Below are positions 53,914-61,076 of a stretch of 64,000 nucleotides of DNA, in pieces. The stretch comes from Deltaproteobacteria bacterium. Lineage in GTDB: Bacteria > Myxococcota_A > UBA9042 > DTJE01. Under the pieces are notes generated by a model that ran no database searches, had not been told where the DNA came from, and was given only the letters and a program-made list of their open reading frames with translations. The stretch is taken from positions 1-64,000 of the forward strand of contig JAKPTZ010000071.1 of assembly GCA_029555025.1 (NCBI GenBank), written 5' to 3'. Position 1 is the stretch's first letter, and each line of letters opens with the position of its first letter. A program made the position numbers and the translations under genes.

Positions 53914-54462
53914 TTACACCGCCTTCTGTGCCCGGCCGACTTCCAGTCCGCGCCGGAAGCATTCCACGTTAACGTCAATCAGCTTTGGCTTGGCCGCGAA
54001 CGTCTCGCGAATCAGGTCTTCCATCTGCTGAACCGGAACCACTTCCGTCGCGCCGACGAAACACCCGACCGTGACCATGTTCGCGCCCTTCGGGTTGCCA
54101 AGCTCGTTGCAGATTTCATTTGCCGCGACGTTGACCACCCGGACATCGGTGCGAACCGCCGGCCGATTGATAAGCGACGTATTGATGACCAGAACGCCCC
54201 CCGGGGCCACCGTTGGCTCGAACTTGTCCAGTGACGGCAGGTTCATCGCGACAACCGCCCACGGGCTGGCCACAACAGGCGACCCGACCGGTTCATCCGC
54301 CACGACGACCGTGCAGTTCGCCGTGCCGCCGCGCATCTCGGGGCCGTAAGAAGGAAGCCAGCTTACTTCCTTGCCACTGTTCAAGCCGGCGTACGCAATC
54401 ATCTTTCCGATAAGCAGGACACCCTGGCCGCCGAAACCGGCAAAAATCATCTCGTGCTGCAT
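53914..54462 (-). CDS. 2-oxoacid:acceptor oxidoreductase gamma subunit
   Basis: This 182-residue subunit begins MQHEMIFAGFGGQGVLLIGK and contains 'PSYGPEMRGGTANCTVVVAD', the KorC/VorC (gamma) signature. It binds the acyl/CoA side of the complex. Start ATG 54462 overlaps the beta-subunit stop as TGATG, so translation is coupled. Confidence 0.93.
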   Translation of the reverse strand: MQHEMIFAGFGGQGVLLIGKMIAYAGLNSGKEVSWLPSYGPEMRGGTANCTVVVADEPVGSPVVASPWAVVAMNLPSLDKFEPTVAPGGVLVINTSLINRPAVRTDVRVVNVAANEICNELGNPKGANMVTVGCFVGATEVVPVQQMEDLIRETFAAKPKLIDVNVECFRRGLEVGRAQKAV

Positions 54463-55259
54463 CACTTACCTCCGTCCTGCAACCCGCAAAGCGGCAGCGG
54501 GGCGCGATCCACGCCTTCCTCCGGTGTCTTGAAGACTCCCAGCGGGTAGTACGGCATCATCGTCTTCTCCAGCCAGTTCAACGCCTCGGCCGGCGGCATG
54601 CCCCAGTTGGTCGGGCAAGTCGAAAGGATTTCGACCATGCTGAAGCACTTTCCTTCCTTCTGGTACTGGAATGCCCTGCGCAGCAGTTCCTTGGTCTGAA
54701 CGGCCTGCAAAGGCCTGATCACGGTGCCGCGCGCGACGAAGGCCGGGGTATGCAGCGTCGAAATAAGCTCGACCATCCGAATCGGATGGCCGGCGAGATC
54801 CAGTTCACGGCCGCGTGGAGACGTCGAGGTCACCTGGCCCGGCATCGTCGTCGGAGCCATCTGGCCGCCGGTCATGCCGTAAATCGCGTTGTTGACGAAC
54901 ACGACGGTGAACTTTTCGCCACGATTCGCGGCATGGACGATTTCGGCCATCCCGATCGATGCCAGGTCTCCGTCACCCTGATAGGTGTAAACCATCAGAT
55001 CCGGACGGGCCCTCTTGATGCCGGTGGCGACCGCCGGGGCGCGTCCATGGCTGGCTTCCTGGTAGTCTGTCGAAAAATAATTGTACGCAAGGACGGCACA
55101 GCCGACGGGAGAAACGCCGACGGTCCTTTCGCGGACGCCCAGTTCGTCGATTACTTCGGCAATCAGCCTGTGGATGATGCCGTGGGTACATCCCGGGCAG
55201 TAGTGTGTCCCACCCGTGGTCAATCCTTCCGGATATCCGAATGCAAGTTTGTCCTTCAT
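54462..55259 (-). CDS. 2-oxoacid:acceptor oxidoreductase beta subunit (TPP-binding)
   Basis: This 265-residue subunit has 'HYCPGCTHGIIHRLIAEVID' at the N-terminus and the TPP motif GDGDLASIGMAEIVHAANRG ending 'VFVNNAIYGMTGGQMAPTT'. It holds the thiamine diphosphate that decarboxylates the 2-oxo acid. It overlaps the alpha-subunit stop (ATGA). Length is typical for the VOR/KOR type. Confidence 0.94.
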   Translation of the reverse strand: MKDKLAFGYPEGLTTGGTHYCPGCTHGIIHRLIAEVIDELGVRERTVGVSPVGCAVLAYNYFSTDYQEASHGRAPAVATGIKRARPDLMVYTYQGDGDLASIGMAEIVHAANRGEKFTVVFVNNAIYGMTGGQMAPTTMPGQVTSTSPRGRELDLAGHPIRMVELISTLHTPAFVARGTVIRPLQAVQTKELLRRAFQYQKEGKCFSMVEILSTCPTNWGMPPAEALNWLEKTMMPYYPLGVFKTPEEGVDRAPLPLCGLQDGGK

Positions 55260-56338
55260 CTGGAAGCCTCCCTGGCGGCGAGCTGCGCCAGAATCTTTTC
55301 ACGAGCCTCGTCCGGGGTAACCAGGTTCCCACCCGTCCTTCCATGGAACGCGACCGGAAAGTCCTTTCCGACCGCCATCCGGACATCCTCCAGCATCTGG
55401 CCGGTGGAAAGCTCGACGACAAGCACGCGACCTGCCTTGTTTGCAGCCCTTTCAATCACTTCCGTCGGGAACGGGAAAAGTGAAATCGGACGCACCAGGG
55501 CAACACGCTTGCCTTCGGCCCGAAGCTGCCGAATCGCGGAAAGGCAGACGCGCGCCACCGAGCCGTACGCAACGACCAGCAGATCGTAATCTTCATCGGT
55601 GAAGTACTCGGCCACCCTGACCTCGTTCCTTGCCATCTCGGCATACTTCGCGGTCAGCTTCTCGTTGTGCCTTTCCAGCAGGTTCGGATCGAGGAACAGC
55701 GAATTGACGATGGCCCGCGGACGACCCTCGCCCTTCCAGCCCGTGGTCGCCCAATCCTTGGACGGAAGCGACCGGCATGGCTGGCGGTCTTCCTTGAACT
55801 CGACGGGCTCCATCATCTGACCGATCAGGCCGTCGGCAATGACCATAACCGGATTCCGGTAATGATCGGCCAGGTCGAACGCATCCTGCATCAGATCGAC
55901 TGCTTCCTGAACCGAAGAAGGCGCAAGCACCAGAAGGCGGTAATCACCGTGACCACCGCCCTTGGTTGACTGGAAATAGTCGGCCTGGGACGGAAGGATT
56001 CCGCCAAGACCCGGGCCGGCGCGCATGATGTTAACGATGACGACAGGCAATTCGGAACCGGCCATGTACGAAACCGCTTCCTGCATCAGGCTGATGCCGG
56101 GCGACGAAGATGACGTGAACACGCGCTCGCCCGCGCCCGCGGCGCCGTAAAGCATATTGGATGCAGCGACCTCGCTTTCCGCCTGAACGAAAGTTCCGCC
56201 CACCTGCGGCAGCCTGCGCGACATATACTCGGGAATCTCGTTTTGCGGAGTGATCGGATAGCCGAAGAACAGCTTGCAGTTCGCCTTGATTGCTGCTTCG
56301 CCGATCGCCTCGCAACCCTTCATAAGTTTTCTGGCCAT
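55256..56338 (-). CDS. vorB: 2-oxoacid:acceptor oxidoreductase alpha subunit, VorB-annotated type
   Basis: This 360-residue subunit closely follows the protein often annotated as 3-methyl-2-oxobutanoate dehydrogenase VorB: 'FFGYPITPQNEIPEYMSRRL', 'QAESEVAASNMLYGAAGAGE', 'VFTSSSSPGISLMQEAVSY', 'GPGLGGILPSQADYFQ'. Names differ between databases (vorA, vorB, korA). It likely acts on branched-chain 2-oxo acids or 2-oxoglutarate. The exact substrate cannot be read from sequence here. The ATG at 56338 has GAGG 8 bases upstream. Confidence 0.93.
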   Translation of the reverse strand: MARKLMKGCEAIGEAAIKANCKLFFGYPITPQNEIPEYMSRRLPQVGGTFVQAESEVAASNMLYGAAGAGERVFTSSSSPGISLMQEAVSYMAGSELPVVIVNIMRAGPGLGGILPSQADYFQSTKGGGHGDYRLLVLAPSSVQEAVDLMQDAFDLADHYRNPVMVIADGLIGQMMEPVEFKEDRQPCRSLPSKDWATTGWKGEGRPRAIVNSLFLDPNLLERHNEKLTAKYAEMARNEVRVAEYFTDEDYDLLVVAYGSVARVCLSAIRQLRAEGKRVALVRPISLFPFPTEVIERAANKAGRVLVVELSTGQMLEDVRMAVGKDFPVAFHGRTGGNLVTPDEAREKILAQLAAREASR

Positions 56339-56388
56339 GGCCAAACCTCAATGGTCCCGCGGGACCTGCAAAGACCGCCTGTCGCCGG

Positions 56389-56622
56389 TCAGTACTTGAA
56401 ATAGTGGTACATCGTGCCGTTGACATTCAGGGACAACGCCACGTCCGGGCATGTGATGCAGCAAAGCCTGCATCCCAGGCACTTCGTCGGTTCCACCCGC
56501 TTAACAAAAAAGTAACCCTTGCCGTTCATCTCCGTGCCGATGGCCAGAACCCCCTGGGGGCAAGCCTTCACGCAGAGCTCACAGCCCTTGCAGCGCTCCT
56601 TTTCGACATCAATCCTGGGCAT
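56389..56622 (-). CDS. Two-cluster ferredoxin, delta subunit of the oxidoreductase
   Basis: This 77-residue protein has CKGCELCVKACP and CLGCRLCCITCP, the 2x[4Fe-4S] delta subunit that takes electrons from the TPP site. AGGAAGG precedes ATG 56622. The start overlaps the tail region of the ATPase gene by a single-base spacing, so both are on one message. Confidence 0.92.
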   Translation of the reverse strand: MPRIDVEKERCKGCELCVKACPQGVLAIGTEMNGKGYFFVKRVEPTKCLGCRLCCITCPDVALSLNVNGTMYHYFKY

Positions 56623-56623
56623 C

Positions 56624-57439
56624 TCAACCTTCCTCGTCCGGCATGGCAGCCGGAACAAACAAGGGGCCGACCTTCCGGACCCCGTAACGACCTTCAACGG
56701 CAGGCGCGAATCCCGGCGCCGGCGGCTGTTCTGGAACACCCGAATCCCCACCCGCGGAGTCGGTATCCGCCGCAAATGTCGTGCGGATCACCCGGGAAAT
56801 CGGGAAGAGCTTCGATTCGAATTCGTCGCCGCTGAATTCGCCTTCTAGCACGGAAGGCACGCAGACGGCCAATACTTTTACACTAAGACGACGAGCACAC
56901 TCGCACGCATTTTCGTATCCGGATCGAACCGTTTCAGGCTTGGTAAACTGCATCAGGTGCGTGTTGGCTATCACGCCGGTGACCCGCATCCTGGCGTTTC
57001 CTTCAATCCCACGAATCATCGCCACGGCCTGATCGGGATCGGCGGTGAACGGTCTGTTGAAATTCAGGACTGCCGCGACCTCGATTTCATCGGGATCCAG
57101 CACGTCGTCAAGGGATCCGATGACCCTGGCCCCCGCATCGTCGCCGCCAACGTCCATTACTACCCGCCGGTCGTGCTGCCTGCACAAACCGCGAACACGG
57201 GGGAGCATGATCGGCAGATCGGCGTAGAAACTGTCGCCGGTCGGCGCGACCAGTTCGACGCCAGCCGCGGCAAGCTGGTCGCGGGCGGATCTGGAACGGA
57301 AATAGGGTTTAATTACATCAAGGTCGATAAGGGAAACAGGAAGGCCGTCGCGCGCAAGCCGCATCGAATAATTGACGGCTATCTCGCTCTTGCCGCTGCC
57401 GAAGTGCCCGACCAGTATCGAAATACGCCTGGTGAACAT
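56624..57439 (-). CDS. P-loop ATPase (CobQ/MinD-like) at the head of the oxidoreductase operon
   Basis: This 271-residue protein has a Walker A VGHFGSGKS (about 10-18), 'SLIDLDVIKPYFRSR' as switch-like region, and 'RVVMDVGGDDAGARVIG' as Walker B-like strand. It looks like the deviant-Walker SIMIBI group (CobQ/CobB/MinD). A Gly/Pro tail follows about residue 225. It is 1 base from the ferredoxin gene and first in the operon. It may assist cluster insertion or complex assembly, but no role is established. ATG 57439 is used rather than a TTG two codons earlier. Confidence 0.82.
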   Translation of the reverse strand: MFTRRISILVGHFGSGKSEIAVNYSMRLARDGLPVSLIDLDVIKPYFRSRSARDQLAAAGVELVAPTGDSFYADLPIMLPRVRGLCRQHDRRVVMDVGGDDAGARVIGSLDDVLDPDEIEVAAVLNFNRPFTADPDQAVAMIRGIEGNARMRVTGVIANTHLMQFTKPETVRSGYENACECARRLSVKVLAVCVPSVLEGEFSGDEFESKLFPISRVIRTTFAADTDSAGGDSGVPEQPPAPGFAPAVEGRYGVRKVGPLFVPAAMPDEEG

Positions 57440-57640
57440 AAACAAACCAGCTTAACCGGGTTGCACTTCCATGCCGACCCGCCGCGGCTAGGTTATTGTG
57501 TCCCCCGAAGCGCGTCAACCCATCCTTTCAAATAAATCCTTTGCTGCAGGAACTCCCGATTTCTGGTCATTCATGCTGGCTGCGTGCAGGTCAACAAAGG
57601 CACTCGACATGTTTATGGAAACTGCTGTATCATTCCGCCC

Positions 57641-58729
57641 ATGCAAGGTTTTCCAGGAAATCAGGGGAAAGTCCGGGGATCGCGGGCGGCGGCATTGAAT
57701 GGCTGGATTCTGGCGTTCCTTTTCCTGGCTGGCTGTAACCCCCAGGAAGACCAGGATCCCTGGAAATCGGCCGAGGTGATTTCTGCCGCAGGAACCGTGG
57801 ACGCGACACCGGCATCAATGGCATGGTCGGGTCGCCCAGGGGTTAAGCCCGGACTCACCGATCGGCGCGGTACGTGTCGGGCCGGCACGCGGCGCCCCGA
57901 TCGTGTGCGGATCGGCGTTCCCGAACTGCTGGTAATGGTCAACGATACTACCGGTCAGCCGGATCCCCTGATTGATCTGGCGTCTTACATCAAATCCCGC
58001 ACCGGACTTGAAGTCGAATTCGTGCGGCTGAACGCGTACCCCCTTTTCACAAGCGGCCTGATTGACGGTTCCCTGCAGGGCGGCCTGTTCCCGCCAGGGG
58101 AGTATCTGAGGGCGCGCAAAATCGACCCCTGTATCCACCTTGTCGCGACCACGATGTACGGAACGTCAACGACTTACACGACCAACCTGGTCGTTCGGCG
58201 CGATTCGGACATCATGGTGCCGTCGGATCTTGTCCAGAAGCGGGTCGCTTTTTCCTCCCGAAGCTCGGCTTCCGGTTATATCTATGCGGTCAAGTTCCTT
58301 GCCGATCGGGGACTGATACCCGAGCGCGACTACATCCCGGTCTTTACTGGCGGCCATCAGGAAACAATTCGGGCGGTTGAAATCGGCACTGTCGCCGCAG
58401 GGGCAACTTTCGGACGGGCCTTGAACGTCGAAATGCAGATTGGACGCGACCTTACCGGTCTGTCGATCCTTGCGGTCGCCGGCCAGATACCGAACGAACC
58501 TCTGGTTTTCGCATCGGATCTCGATCCGGACATCATCCGGGCGATGACCGACGCCTTCCTGTCCCTTAACCGCGGAACCGCAGAGGGACGAAAGCTGCTC
58601 GGGGCGCTTGACCTGATGTCCGGATGGGTGCGCGCGGATGATTCGTTCTACGACGGATTGATGACAACTGTCCAGGCGGTTGACAGAATCGTTCGCTCGG
58701 CTGACTCGGGCGGGGAGATCGGACGATGA
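57641..58729 (+). CDS. PhnD-like periplasmic-binding lipoprotein
   Basis: This 362-residue lipoprotein (lipobox LAGC, Cys32) has a phosphate/phosphonate ABC transporter substrate-binding (PhnD) fold: 'RIGVPELLVMVNDTTGQPDP', 'FTSGLIDGSLQGGLFPPGEY', 'KRVAFSSRSSASGYIYAVKF' and 'EIGTVAAGATFGRALNVE'. No transporter permease or ATPase is nearby. Instead the next gene, a diguanylate cyclase, overlaps its stop (ATGA). I infer a ligand-sensing role like NspS with MbaA in Vibrio. The start ATG 57641 gives a long N-region with no Shine-Dalgarno sequence. A TTG at 57695 would give a shorter signal peptide. Confidence 0.82.
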   Translation: MQGFPGNQGKVRGSRAAALNGWILAFLFLAGCNPQEDQDPWKSAEVISAAGTVDATPASMAWSGRPGVKPGLTDRRGTCRAGTRRPDRVRIGVPELLVMVNDTTGQPDPLIDLASYIKSRTGLEVEFVRLNAYPLFTSGLIDGSLQGGLFPPGEYLRARKIDPCIHLVATTMYGTSTTYTTNLVVRRDSDIMVPSDLVQKRVAFSSRSSASGYIYAVKFLADRGLIPERDYIPVFTGGHQETIRAVEIGTVAAGATFGRALNVEMQIGRDLTGLSILAVAGQIPNEPLVFASDLDPDIIRAMTDAFLSLNRGTAEGRKLLGALDLMSGWVRADDSFYDGLMTTVQAVDRIVRSADSGGEIGR

Positions 58730-60069
58730 GCCTTCGCCTGAAAATCCTGCTGCTGACGATCGGAATCGTTGTTTTCGCCGTTGCGGGAACCGCGCGCCTT
58801 ATTGCAAAGGGCATGTACGAACGGCTGGTTACCGAGTCCGAACTTCGGGCGGTCGCGCTGATCGAGGGCGTTGCCTTGTCGGTTCGTGACGACCTTGCTT
58901 GCGAGAGACTGGATGAAATCGGGAAATCCCTGATTCAACTTCGCGATCCGGGATCCGGCAGATCCGACGTCATCTTCACTCTTATCCTTGACGGCAATGG
59001 ACGGGCGGTCGGACGCGAAGTGATGCCGGAATACGAGCAACTCCTGAAGAGTGACTTCGTTCGACAGGCAACCGCGGCAAGCCGGGAACTGAAGACACAT
59101 GTCACCTTCGATGGCAGGGACATCGTCCTGGTCAGCATCCCGGTCATCAGCAGCGTTCCCCACATCGAGGGCGTTCGCTGGGGAACCGTTGTCGGCGGAA
59201 TGGACATCGGCCGCATCGAGGCCGCGATGTTTCCGCTGGTCAGGTACGCGGTTGGCGCGGCACTCGGATTCCTGCTCATCGGGGTGTTCCTTCTGGTTCT
59301 GACGCTTTACAGAAACCTGCTTTCACCGATCAATAAGCTGGCCGAGGCCGCGTCGCGCTTCGCCGCAGGCGACCTTCAGTTCAGAGCGCCGCAGGGCACG
59401 GCCGACGAGCTGGGCCGACTCGGGGCGACGATGAACCAGATGGCCAGCGATATCGAACAGCACACCCGGACACTTGAGGACGCGGTCAAGGCAAGGACCC
59501 GCGAACTGGAGCAGGCAAATTCCAGATTGCACGAACTTGCGGCCATGGACGAATTGACCGGTCTTGGTAACCGGCGCACATTCACCGCCGCGCTGAATCG
59601 TGAATTCAGGCGGGCCAGACGCGACGGCTCCTGCATTTCGATGCTGATGCTCGATGTTGACCATTTCAAGAAATACAACGATACGCACGGCCACCCGGCC
59701 GGCGACGTGGCCCTGAACAAGGTCGGTGCGATCCTTCGAAACCATTTGCGCGTGACGGACATACCGTGCCGATACGGCGGCGAGGAATTCGCGGTTATCC
59801 TGTGCCAGACCGCAAGGGATGACGGGATGCGGATTGCGGACGACATCCGCCGCGTCGTGCAGCAGGAAGTCTTTTTCGGGGAAGATCGCCAGCCGCTTGG
59901 AACCTTCACTGTGTCCATCGGTGTTTCAACTTTTCCCCGTGACGCCGACGATCCGGACAAGCTGGTCGATGCGGCGGACATTGCGCTTTACCAGGCCAAG
60001 GCATCGGGACGAAACCAGGTTCGCGGGTTCGAACCCGGCATGACCGCCAAGGCCAACCTGTCCAATTGA
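58726..60069 (+). CDS. Membrane diguanylate cyclase (HAMP-GGDEF)
   Basis: This 447-residue protein has membrane segments at about 7-25 and 168-190, an extracytoplasmic sensor of about 140 residues, HAMP (about 190-245), a short coiled coil ('LEDAVKARTRELEQANSRLHELA' region, outline) and GGDEF. The active site is GGEEF in CRYGGEEFAVIL, and the I-site RVTD sits five residues earlier, so product inhibition is likely. It makes cyclic di-GMP. Start ATG overlaps the PhnD-like stop, so the two are made together. Confidence 0.94.
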   Translation: MSLRLKILLLTIGIVVFAVAGTARLIAKGMYERLVTESELRAVALIEGVALSVRDDLACERLDEIGKSLIQLRDPGSGRSDVIFTLILDGNGRAVGREVMPEYEQLLKSDFVRQATAASRELKTHVTFDGRDIVLVSIPVISSVPHIEGVRWGTVVGGMDIGRIEAAMFPLVRYAVGAALGFLLIGVFLLVLTLYRNLLSPINKLAEAASRFAAGDLQFRAPQGTADELGRLGATMNQMASDIEQHTRTLEDAVKARTRELEQANSRLHELAAMDELTGLGNRRTFTAALNREFRRARRDGSCISMLMLDVDHFKKYNDTHGHPAGDVALNKVGAILRNHLRVTDIPCRYGGEEFAVILCQTARDDGMRIADDIRRVVQQEVFFGEDRQPLGTFTVSIGVSTFPRDADDPDKLVDAADIALYQAKASGRNQVRGFEPGMTAKANLSN

Positions 60070-60188
60070 ACCGTTTGATTCCCGTCTGCGGGTCGGCATT
60101 ACGATGACGATGCGGTTCGGCGGATAAACCGGTTGGTTCGAACAATCCTGGCAATCCGGAACATGAACCGGAAAATCCGCGACGGAAC

Positions 60189-61076
60189 CTACAGGGAACG
60201 GCCGGTCAGAAGCATGTAAGCGTCCACATAACGTGACGAAGTATTGGCCACGACTTCCGGTGGCAGGCTGGGAATGGGCGGTTCCTTGTTCCAACCGATC
60301 TGCAACAGGTAGTCGCGGACGTACTGCTTGTCGAAGGACGGCTGCGCGCGGCCCGGCGCGTACTGATCCGCCGGCCAGAAGCGACTGCTGTCCGGCGTCA
60401 GGACTTCATCGCAGACAATCAGTTCACCGTCGATGAAACCGAATTCAAATTTGGTGTCGGCGATGATGATACCCCGGGTAAGCGCGTAGTCGGCCGCGGT
60501 CGTGTAAAGCATCAGGGATGCGTCACGAATCCTGGCGGCCACTTCCGCGCCGACAATCTCGACGGCCTGGTCGAAGCTGATGTTTTCATCATGACCGCTT
60601 TCAGCCTTGGTTGACGGAGTAAAGAGCGGCGACGGCAACTTGCTCGAATCCTGCAACCCTTCCGGCAGCTTGATGCCGCAGACCGCGCCCGTGCGTTTGT
60701 AGTCGTTCCAGCCGGATCCCGACAGGTAACCGCGAACGATGCATTCAACCGGCACCATCTTCGCCTTGTGGGCAAGCGTGAAACGTCCCTGAAGGATGTC
60801 GCCGTACTTGTGAAGCGACTGCGGCAAATCCGCGACTTCCGTTGAAATCATGTGATTCTTCAGCTTATCGGCCGTCATTTCGAACCAGAACTTCGACATC
60901 AGGTTCAGGACGCGGCCCTTGTCGGGAATTGGCTGCGGCAGGATGTGATCAAATGCCGACAGCCGGTCGGTCACGACGATCAGGAGATTTTCGCCAAGAT
61001 CATAGATGTCACGAACCTTGCCCTTTGAGATCAGCGGAAACTCGGTGAAGTTGGTCGAAGTGACGGTGGTGCTCAT
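60189..61076 (-). CDS. purC: Phosphoribosylaminoimidazole-succinocarboxamide synthase
   Basis: This 295-residue SAICAR synthetase has '[20 protein letters not shown]', '[18 protein letters not shown]', '[18 protein letters not shown]' and 'TKFEFGF'. It ligates aspartate to CAIR in purine biosynthesis. Length fits the longer (yeast-like) PurC type. GGAGG lies before ATG 61076. An upstream frame extends to 61331 but lacks a signal. Confidence 0.96.

What the first reader, a model, noticed from the sequence alone, without database searches (positions are those of the whole stretch)
57641..60069. PhnD-like binding lipoprotein translationally coupled to a diguanylate cyclase
The stop of the PhnD-like gene overlaps the start of a HAMP-GGDEF gene (ATGA), and no ABC permease or ATPase is near. 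The cyclase has a periplasmic region of about 140 residues. This suggests a two-part sensor in which a lipoprotein senses a small anion or other ligand and controls cyclic di-GMP, by analogy with NspS-MbaA. The GGEEF and I-site are intact.
Basis: partly seen in the sequence, partly recalled or inferred. Interest (0 to 1): 0.55.

Follow-up and report, generated by a model that had tools for sequence, protein, structure and literature searches.

The report
Binding protein paired with c-di-GMP synthase
Two overlapping genes most likely make a two-part sensor, in which a lipid-anchored protein outside the inner membrane catches a small, probably phosphorus-containing, anion and tells a membrane enzyme how much of the signal molecule cyclic di-GMP to make; this kind of pair is already described in Xanthomonas, and here it recurs in many uncultured relatives of myxobacteria.

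Summary
A PhnD-type lipoprotein gene (57641-58729) ends in an ATGA overlap with a gene for a membrane diguanylate cyclase (58726-60069) with a periplasmic domain of about 135 residues, HAMP, an intact GGEEF and an intact I-site. No ABC gene is adjacent, and the draft genome has no match to the PhnE permease family. The pair is not local. Of 40 related loci fetched by the binding protein, 31 have an adjacent GGDEF gene. A profile of the cyclase's periplasmic domain run on 282 genomes of the phylum gave 18 strong matches that had not made the profile; 17 sit beside such a binding protein and one is at a contig end. The periplasmic domain is a single Cache domain. The binding proteins group with AioX and apart from ABC-linked ones in a quick tree with moderate support. 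Some relatives have a histidine kinase or a fused Ser/Thr kinase instead. [quoted passage not shown] Verdict: new member of a known kind. The ligand is unknown; the pocket fits a phosphate- or phosphonate-like anion and lacks the AioX arsenite cysteine.

The parts
57604..57633 (+). sigma-70-like promoter match just upstream of the pair (weak; not evidence of function)
   Evidence: TCGACA-18-TATCAT, 10 of 12; 3 such matches found in 57300-60400, shuffled mean 0.9
57641..58729 (+). PhnD-type periplasmic binding lipoprotein, 362 aa, incl. stop
   Evidence: model pLDDT 85.1; fold matches AioX, ArrX, PtxB, XAC2383
57641..57736 (+). lipoprotein signal peptide ending in LAGC (Cys32)
   Evidence: sequence; Cys in 28 of 30 aligned sequences
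57890..58690 (+). binding domain, residues about 84-350, with pocket residues Y133, Y179, S209, S211, H239, E286
58726..58729 (+). ATGA overlap: start of the cyclase over the stop of the binding protein
   Evidence: a start codon at the same 4-nt overlap in 20 of 30 PBP-then-DGC rows
58726..60069 (+). membrane diguanylate cyclase, 447 aa, incl. stop
   Evidence: model pLDDT 89.2, pTM 0.47
58813..59220 (+). periplasmic single Cache domain (about residues 30-165) with the near-invariant G-x-R-W-G-T motif before TM2
   Evidence: topology; sCache_3_2 matches 18 of 29 family members at E up to 10, best 7.7e-11, the window's own row none; motif counts
59305..59457 (+). HAMP domain (residues 194-244)
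   Evidence: E 1.3e-13
59539..60018 (+). GGDEF domain (residues 272-431)
59749..59760 (+). inhibitory site RVTD (residues 342-345)
59776..59790 (+). active-site GGEEF (residues 351-355)

Best explanation
A bipartite receptor. The lipoprotein is a PhnD-fold binding protein that serves signalling and not transport: it closes around a small oxyanion or phospho-compound in the periplasm, and its ligand state is read by the single Cache domain of the co-translated cyclase. The signal passes through TM2 and HAMP to the GGDEF domain, raising or lowering c-di-GMP synthesis, with product feedback at the I-site. Shown here: gene pair, overlap, domain content, intact catalytic and I-site motifs, conserved pocket, conserved pairing in related genomes of the phylum. 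Inferred: ligand binding, physical contact, sign of control (in XAC2383-XAC2382, as I recall the abstract, the ligand-loaded binding protein inhibits the cyclase).
For: Pairing from both directions: 31 of 40 PBP-selected loci have an adjacent same-strand GGDEF gene; 17 of 18 strong Cache-domain matches not used in the profile have an adjacent PBP, 1 at a contig end. A start codon at exactly the 4-nt overlap in 20 of 30 PBP-then-DGC rows (the script took the in-frame start nearest that spot; the shared frame relation holds in 22 of 30). aioX and the sensor-kinase gene behind it in NT-26 have the same 4-nt overlap. Cache domain: topology. No PhnE family match in the genome. Pocket: Y179, S209, H239 in 30 of 30; S211 27; Y133 27; D or E at 286 in 30, mapped by me onto residues named in passages of PMC5908839 and PMC5700983. 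Quick tree: a group of 53 rows (SH-aLRT 90, not starred) holds 31 of 32 PBP-DGC rows, 11 of 12 DGC-PBP rows and 0 of 11 ABC-linked rows. Output swap with the Cache domain kept: L138.
Against: No binding, interaction or enzyme assay, and no co-fold. The sign of control and the ligand are unknown. The window's own Cache region gives no Pfam Cache match by itself. Distance correlation is not specific to the contact domain: PBP with Cache r 0.79, with HAMP/coiled coil r 0.80. Two rows with adjacent GGDEF genes (L067, L087) fall outside the 53-row group, on long branches. Not all relatives pair: 9 of 40 loci have no adjacent GGDEF gene in the fetched stretch, and 7 of 20 named loci have PhnC beside the binding protein.
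Confidence: 0.82

Rival explanations
1. The binding protein serves a phosphonate, phosphite or phosphate ABC importer encoded elsewhere, and the cyclase gene next to it is incidental.
For: The nearest solved proteins include PtxB, HtxB and PhnD of importers. More distant relatives sit beside PhnC (L068; L085, L086, L089-L093).
Against: No PhnE family match in the draft genome; pairing with the Cache cyclase recurs across the phylum; in the quick tree the 11 ABC-linked rows lie outside the group. Scores are under the curated cut-offs of TIGR01098 and TIGR03431.
Confidence: 0.06
2. The binding protein is a constitutive, ligand-independent partner (a repressor like YfiR or a stability partner) of the Cache cyclase, and the Cache domain itself senses.
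For: Cache domains commonly bind ligands themselves (general knowledge); the overlap would also suit a fixed-ratio inhibitor; the comparison with YfiR is recalled.
Against: The PBP pocket is conserved at the residues that hold the oxyanion in AioX and PtxB, which a mere inhibitor would not need.
Confidence: 0.1
3. An arsenic sensor like AioX/ArrX whose output is c-di-GMP.
For: AioX is the top fold match and the top sequence match among solved structures for the window protein, and its gene is coupled to a kinase gene with the same overlap.
Against: AioX Cys106, which holds arsenite, is P/S/A/G in 30 of 30, and the Asp210 position is F/A/S/Y/T in 30 of 30 (my mapping from the alignment printed). 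Arsenic genes nearby were not searched for.
Confidence: 0.02

Closest known systems
XAC2383-XAC2382 of Xanthomonas citri (Teixeira et al. 2018, J Biol Chem 293:10767; citation seen in PMC10380989; paper not held; abstract recalled)
   Same: PF12974 binding protein (5ub3, listed as PF12974 in PMC10942540; Z 24.2, rmsd 2.9, 256 aligned) paired with a cyclase that has a periplasmic Cache domain (the Cache domain is recalled).
   Different: The profile of this family reaches XAC2383 (E 2.3e-17) far less well than PtxB (1.3e-45) or AioX (6.7e-44), so the binding protein is not its closest kin. Whether the Cache domains are homologous could not be tested.
AioX-AioS (and ArrX-ArrS) arsenic sensing
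   Same: Nearest PBP by sequence and fold, oxyanion-pocket Tyr/Tyr/Ser/Ser/His kept, PBP gene ahead of the receptor gene with a 4-nt overlap (the kinase gene is unnamed in the record, AioS by inference), HAMP at residues 192-246.
   Different: Output is a histidine kinase, not GGDEF; the kinase gives no match to the Cache profile at E up to 10; arsenite Cys106 absent here.
NspS-MbaA polyamine sensing
   Same: Periplasmic binding protein controlling a membrane c-di-GMP enzyme (abstract starts in the listing).
   Different: MbaA has GGDEF and EAL and NspS belongs to a PotD-type family (both recalled); here no EAL and PF12974.
PtxB/HtxB/PhnD importer binding proteins
   Same: Fold (PtxB 5o2j Z 27.0, rmsd 2.5, 255 aligned) and the S-x-S...H anion cradle.
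   Different: No importer genes adjacent in the window, no PhnE match in the genome; an acid at the position that I map to the PtxB tyrosine cap.

Membership tests
XAC2383-XAC2382-type bipartite receptor-cyclase pair | PF12974 periplasmic binding protein | tested here: met
XAC2383-XAC2382-type bipartite receptor-cyclase pair | adjacent membrane GGDEF protein with a periplasmic Cache domain | tested here: met
   adjacency; at family level sCache_3_2 in 18 of 29 members at E up to 10 (not in the window's own row), Cache-like topology of the window's model
XAC2383-XAC2382-type bipartite receptor-cyclase pair | sequence kinship of both parts with XAC2383 and XAC2382 | tested here: inconclusive
   PBP profile reaches XAC2383 at E 2.3e-17 but other families rank higher; no XAC2382 sequence could be reached (error)
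XAC2383-XAC2382-type bipartite receptor-cyclase pair | physical contact and ligand-dependent control of the cyclase | not testable with these tools
   needs protein
AioXS arsenic sensor | oxyanion cradle Y88, Y131, S161, S163, H192 | tested here: met
   window Y133, Y179, S209, S211, H239 (residue list from PMC5908839; mapping mine)
AioXS arsenic sensor | Cys106 that binds arsenite | tested here: not met
   P/S/A/G in 30 of 30
AioXS arsenic sensor | partner is a sensor histidine kinase | tested here: not met
   HAMP-GGDEF
PhnCDE-type ABC importer | ATPase and permease genes beside the binding protein | tested here: not met
   neighbours in the window are other genes; no PhnE match in the genome
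PhnD equivalog TIGR03431 / TIGR01098 | score over curated cut-off | tested here: not met
   63.7 against 261.1 bits, 90.5 against 112.05 bits
NspS-MbaA | GGDEF-EAL receptor | tested here: not met
   no EAL listed for the 447-aa protein at E up to 1

The most novel reading that the evidence does not exclude
In Myxococcota, a lineage of AioX/PtxB-like binding proteins has left transport and become a dedicated signalling part that is recombined with different outputs: Cache-GGDEF in either gene order, Cache-histidine kinase, and fused Ser/Thr kinase. The pair in this window would then be a separately assembled counterpart of XAC2383-XAC2382, reading an extracellular phosphate- or phosphonate-type compound through a pocket with a conserved acid at the PhnD Asp205 position.
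Probability: 0.4. Interest if true: 0.45.

Novelty: new member of a known kind. Interest (0 to 1): 0.33.

Why it matters
The inputs of many c-di-GMP enzymes are unknown. A conserved soluble receptor that can be purified and screened makes the input of a group of cyclases directly testable. It also shows one binding-protein lineage beside cyclases and histidine kinases and fused to Ser/Thr kinases, so that a name such as 'phosphonate ABC transporter substrate-binding protein' would mislead for it. The principle itself is already published for Xanthomonas.

Tried and rejected
Literature: the listings (PhnD, phosphonate or periplasmic binding protein with diguanylate cyclase) showed no paper on such a pair; the library lacks most subscription journals. 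The precedent surfaced through the structure title XAC2383 and then. Passages of PMC6416229, PMC10333796 and PMC8262913 held nothing on it. A review (PMC8846402, passages) says that of the PBP clan only SBP_bac_3 had been studied in c-di-GMP networks, speaking of domains inside such enzymes.

tblastn of the cyclase's residues 1-195 against plasmids: no match. Whole-model fold searches of the cyclase are filled by GGDEF domains and say nothing about the Cache part.

Mirror-tree test (28 pairs): PBP distances correlate with Cache 0.79, HAMP/coiled coil 0.80, GGDEF 0.61; partial 0.66 for Cache given GGDEF, 0.43 for Cache given HAMP, 0.47 for HAMP given Cache. It does not single out the Cache domain and is not used as evidence.

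Limits of my counts. The start of each cyclase was taken as the in-frame start codon nearest the overlap spot, which favours -4; the frame relation itself is shared by 22 of 30 rows, and the rows are related to each other. The PhnE reference used was the E. coli K-12 pseudogene read in one frame and hit nothing, even beside PhnC, so those calls test for the ATPase only; the permease was tested with TIGR01097 in the window's genome alone. One search scored at most 13 candidates a genome, and its 282 genomes are a draw from a larger group. The second, weak PF12974-type matches of G006 and G009 and the weak one of G004 were not fetched.

Rows dropped: L067 from the Cache alignment because its periplasmic part does not align; L131, L134, L135 (short domain hits) and L041, L081, L127, L133 (truncated, short or duplicate) from the tree; L041 and L067. 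Of 13 weak Cache matches (E 5e-8 to 5.5e-4), 5 were fetched; 3 have an adjacent PBP (L141, L143, L145), 2 do not (L142, L144).

Arsenic sensing and a YfiR-like inhibitor were considered (see rivals). Promoter and terminator scans gave nothing firm.

Full report
What is there. Two plus-strand ORFs, 57641-58729 and 58726-60069, overlap by ATGA. They lie between minus-strand genes: on one side a P-loop ATPase (ParA/CbiA matches, weak and under their cut-offs), a ferredoxin ORF and what read by eye as 2-oxoacid oxidoreductase genes, on the other SAICAR synthetase. The first encodes a 362-aa protein with a lipoprotein signal (LAGC, Cys32) and a PF12974 domain (E 2.5e-41) that scores under the cut-offs of the PhnD and the general phosphate/phosphite/phosphonate transporter models. 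The second encodes TM - periplasmic domain - TM - HAMP - GGDEF, with GGEEF and the I-site RxxD intact.

The genome. It is a 3.49-Mb draft, 97.57% complete. The genome holds three PF12974 matches, six GGDEF matches and no match to the PhnE permease family, which rings in 13 of 14 control genomes.

Is the pairing conserved? The binding protein was searched in 109 related genomes; 64 have a match at E<=0.001. Forty places, most of them among the best-scoring, were fetched. In 31 of 40 an adjacent same-strand gene carries GGDEF. The other nine: L045 ends soon after, but the Cache domain follows directly; L058 is a 3.3-kb contig without a recognised partner; L054 has a histidine kinase gene ahead of it; L061 and L062 are fusions to a Ser/Thr kinase; L063 and L070 are large proteins with the binding domain near the C-terminus, not identified further (a kinase-like gene follows in L063); L066 has no recognised partner; L068 has a PhnC-like ATPase behind it. 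All 10 strong matches in other genomes of the same family are paired. Among 30 rows with the binding protein first, the offset of the nearest usable start is -4 in 20, -11 in 6, and -14, 0, +2, +5 once each.

Named loci. Of the 20 named loci, 9 have an adjacent GGDEF gene (7 of them the same contigs as above), 7 have PhnC beside the binding protein (L085, L086, L089-L093, mostly Armatimonadota), 2 are Ser/Thr-kinase fusions (L084, L088) and 2 show neither (L080, L082).

The reverse test. A profile of the cyclase's periplasmic region (29 rows) was run on 282 genomes of the phylum: 57 have a match; 47 matches have E of 1.1e-20 or better and the next is 5e-8. Twenty-nine of the 47 are the rows that made the profile and are circular. 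Of the 18 others, 17 lie beside a protein detected as a relative of the binding protein; the last (G031) is at a contig end. The cyclase comes first in nine of the 17 (L060, L126, L128, L129, L130, L132, L133, L137, L140), and in one (L138) the output is a histidine kinase behind the same Cache domain.

Domains and fold. Members' periplasmic regions match Pfam sCache_3_2 in 18 of 29 (E up to 10 allowed, best 7.7e-11) and dCache_1 in 8, while the window's own row gives none. The model of the cyclase shows a long helix, a further helix, five strands and two short helices between the membrane helices, as expected of a single Cache domain (pLDDT 89.2, pTM 0.47). The binding-protein model (pLDDT 85.1) matches AioX first by Foldseek; by VIA-align it matches PtxB (5o2j, Z 27.0, rmsd 2.5, 255 aligned), AioX (6esk, Z 25.9, rmsd 3.4, 261 aligned), ArrX (6x8w, Z 25.4, rmsd 2.7, 252 aligned) and XAC2383 (5ub3, Z 24.2, rmsd 2.9, 256 aligned).

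Pocket. Badilla et al. 2018 (PMC5908839, passages) list Tyr88, Cys106, Tyr131, Ser161, Ser163, His192 and Asp210 as the AioX pocket and place AioX Pro240 at Asp205 of PhnD. On the alignment printed I map these to Y133, P151, Y179, S209, S211, H239, F257 and E286. In 30 aligned sequences Y179, S209 and H239 are invariant, S211 is Ser in 27, Y133 Tyr in 27, position 286 is Asp or Glu in 30, and position 151 is never Cys. Bisson et al. 2017 (PMC5700983, passages) describe the STS-H cradle of PtxB and its tyrosine cap; by the alignment the cap position falls at the acid here, so a phosphite-specific pocket is unlikely. A phosphate- or phosphonate-like anion is the best guess; the compound is not known.

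Evolution. A quick tree of 70 binding domains rooted on E. coli PhnD puts 31 of 32 PBP-first and 11 of 12 cyclase-first rows in a group of 53 (SH-aLRT 90, not starred), together with the two AioX rows, two other kinase-linked rows and five of six rows with a fused or C-terminal domain, and with none of the 11 ABC-linked rows. Several branches are long and many forks are open, so the order inside is uncertain; L067, L087 and one kinase-linked row (L141) fall outside.

Comparison with what is known. aioX and the kinase gene behind it overlap by 4 nt exactly as here, and the kinase has HAMP at the same place, so the pair has the layout of AioX-AioS with GGDEF as output; the kinase gives no match to the Cache profile. 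[quoted passage not shown] the paper is not held. From recall, its abstract reports contact between XAC2383 and the periplasmic Cache domain of XAC2382, preference of XAC2383 for phosphate-containing ligands, inhibition of the cyclase by the loaded receptor, and homologous systems in several phyla. A study of solute-binding proteins (PMC9602780, passages) states that such proteins stimulate cyclases among other receptors. So the kind is known and this is a member by layout; sequence kinship with the Xanthomonas proteins is weak for the binding protein and untested for the cyclase.

Verdict. It is a well-conserved, experimentally untested receptor-cyclase pair of a known kind.

Noticed in passing
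L061:4836-7106, L062:6753-9434, L084:72-2579, L088:3936-5741: PF12974 binding domain fused C-terminally to a Ser/Thr protein kinase: a related binding domain as the likely external part of a one-protein receptor kinase.
   Followed up: partly
L126, L128, L129, L130, L132, L133, L137, L140, L060: Gene order reversed (cyclase first, binding protein second) in some families of the phylum, several with the same 4-nt overlap.
   Followed up: partly
L138:3963-6832 and L141:1789-4962: Binding protein followed by a Cache domain with a histidine kinase (L138), or by a short Cache protein and then a kinase gene (L141), instead of GGDEF.
   Followed up: partly
G000:C147:5953-6345 (L095:136-3393): The same genome has a large histidine kinase whose N-terminal part matches several solute-binding families, PF04392, SBP_bac_3 and PF12974.
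   Followed up: no
window 53914-57445, minus strand: A ParA/CbiA-like P-loop ATPase gene overlaps a ferredoxin ORF that heads what look like 2-oxoacid:ferredoxin oxidoreductase genes (the oxidoreductase reading is by eye).
   Followed up: no
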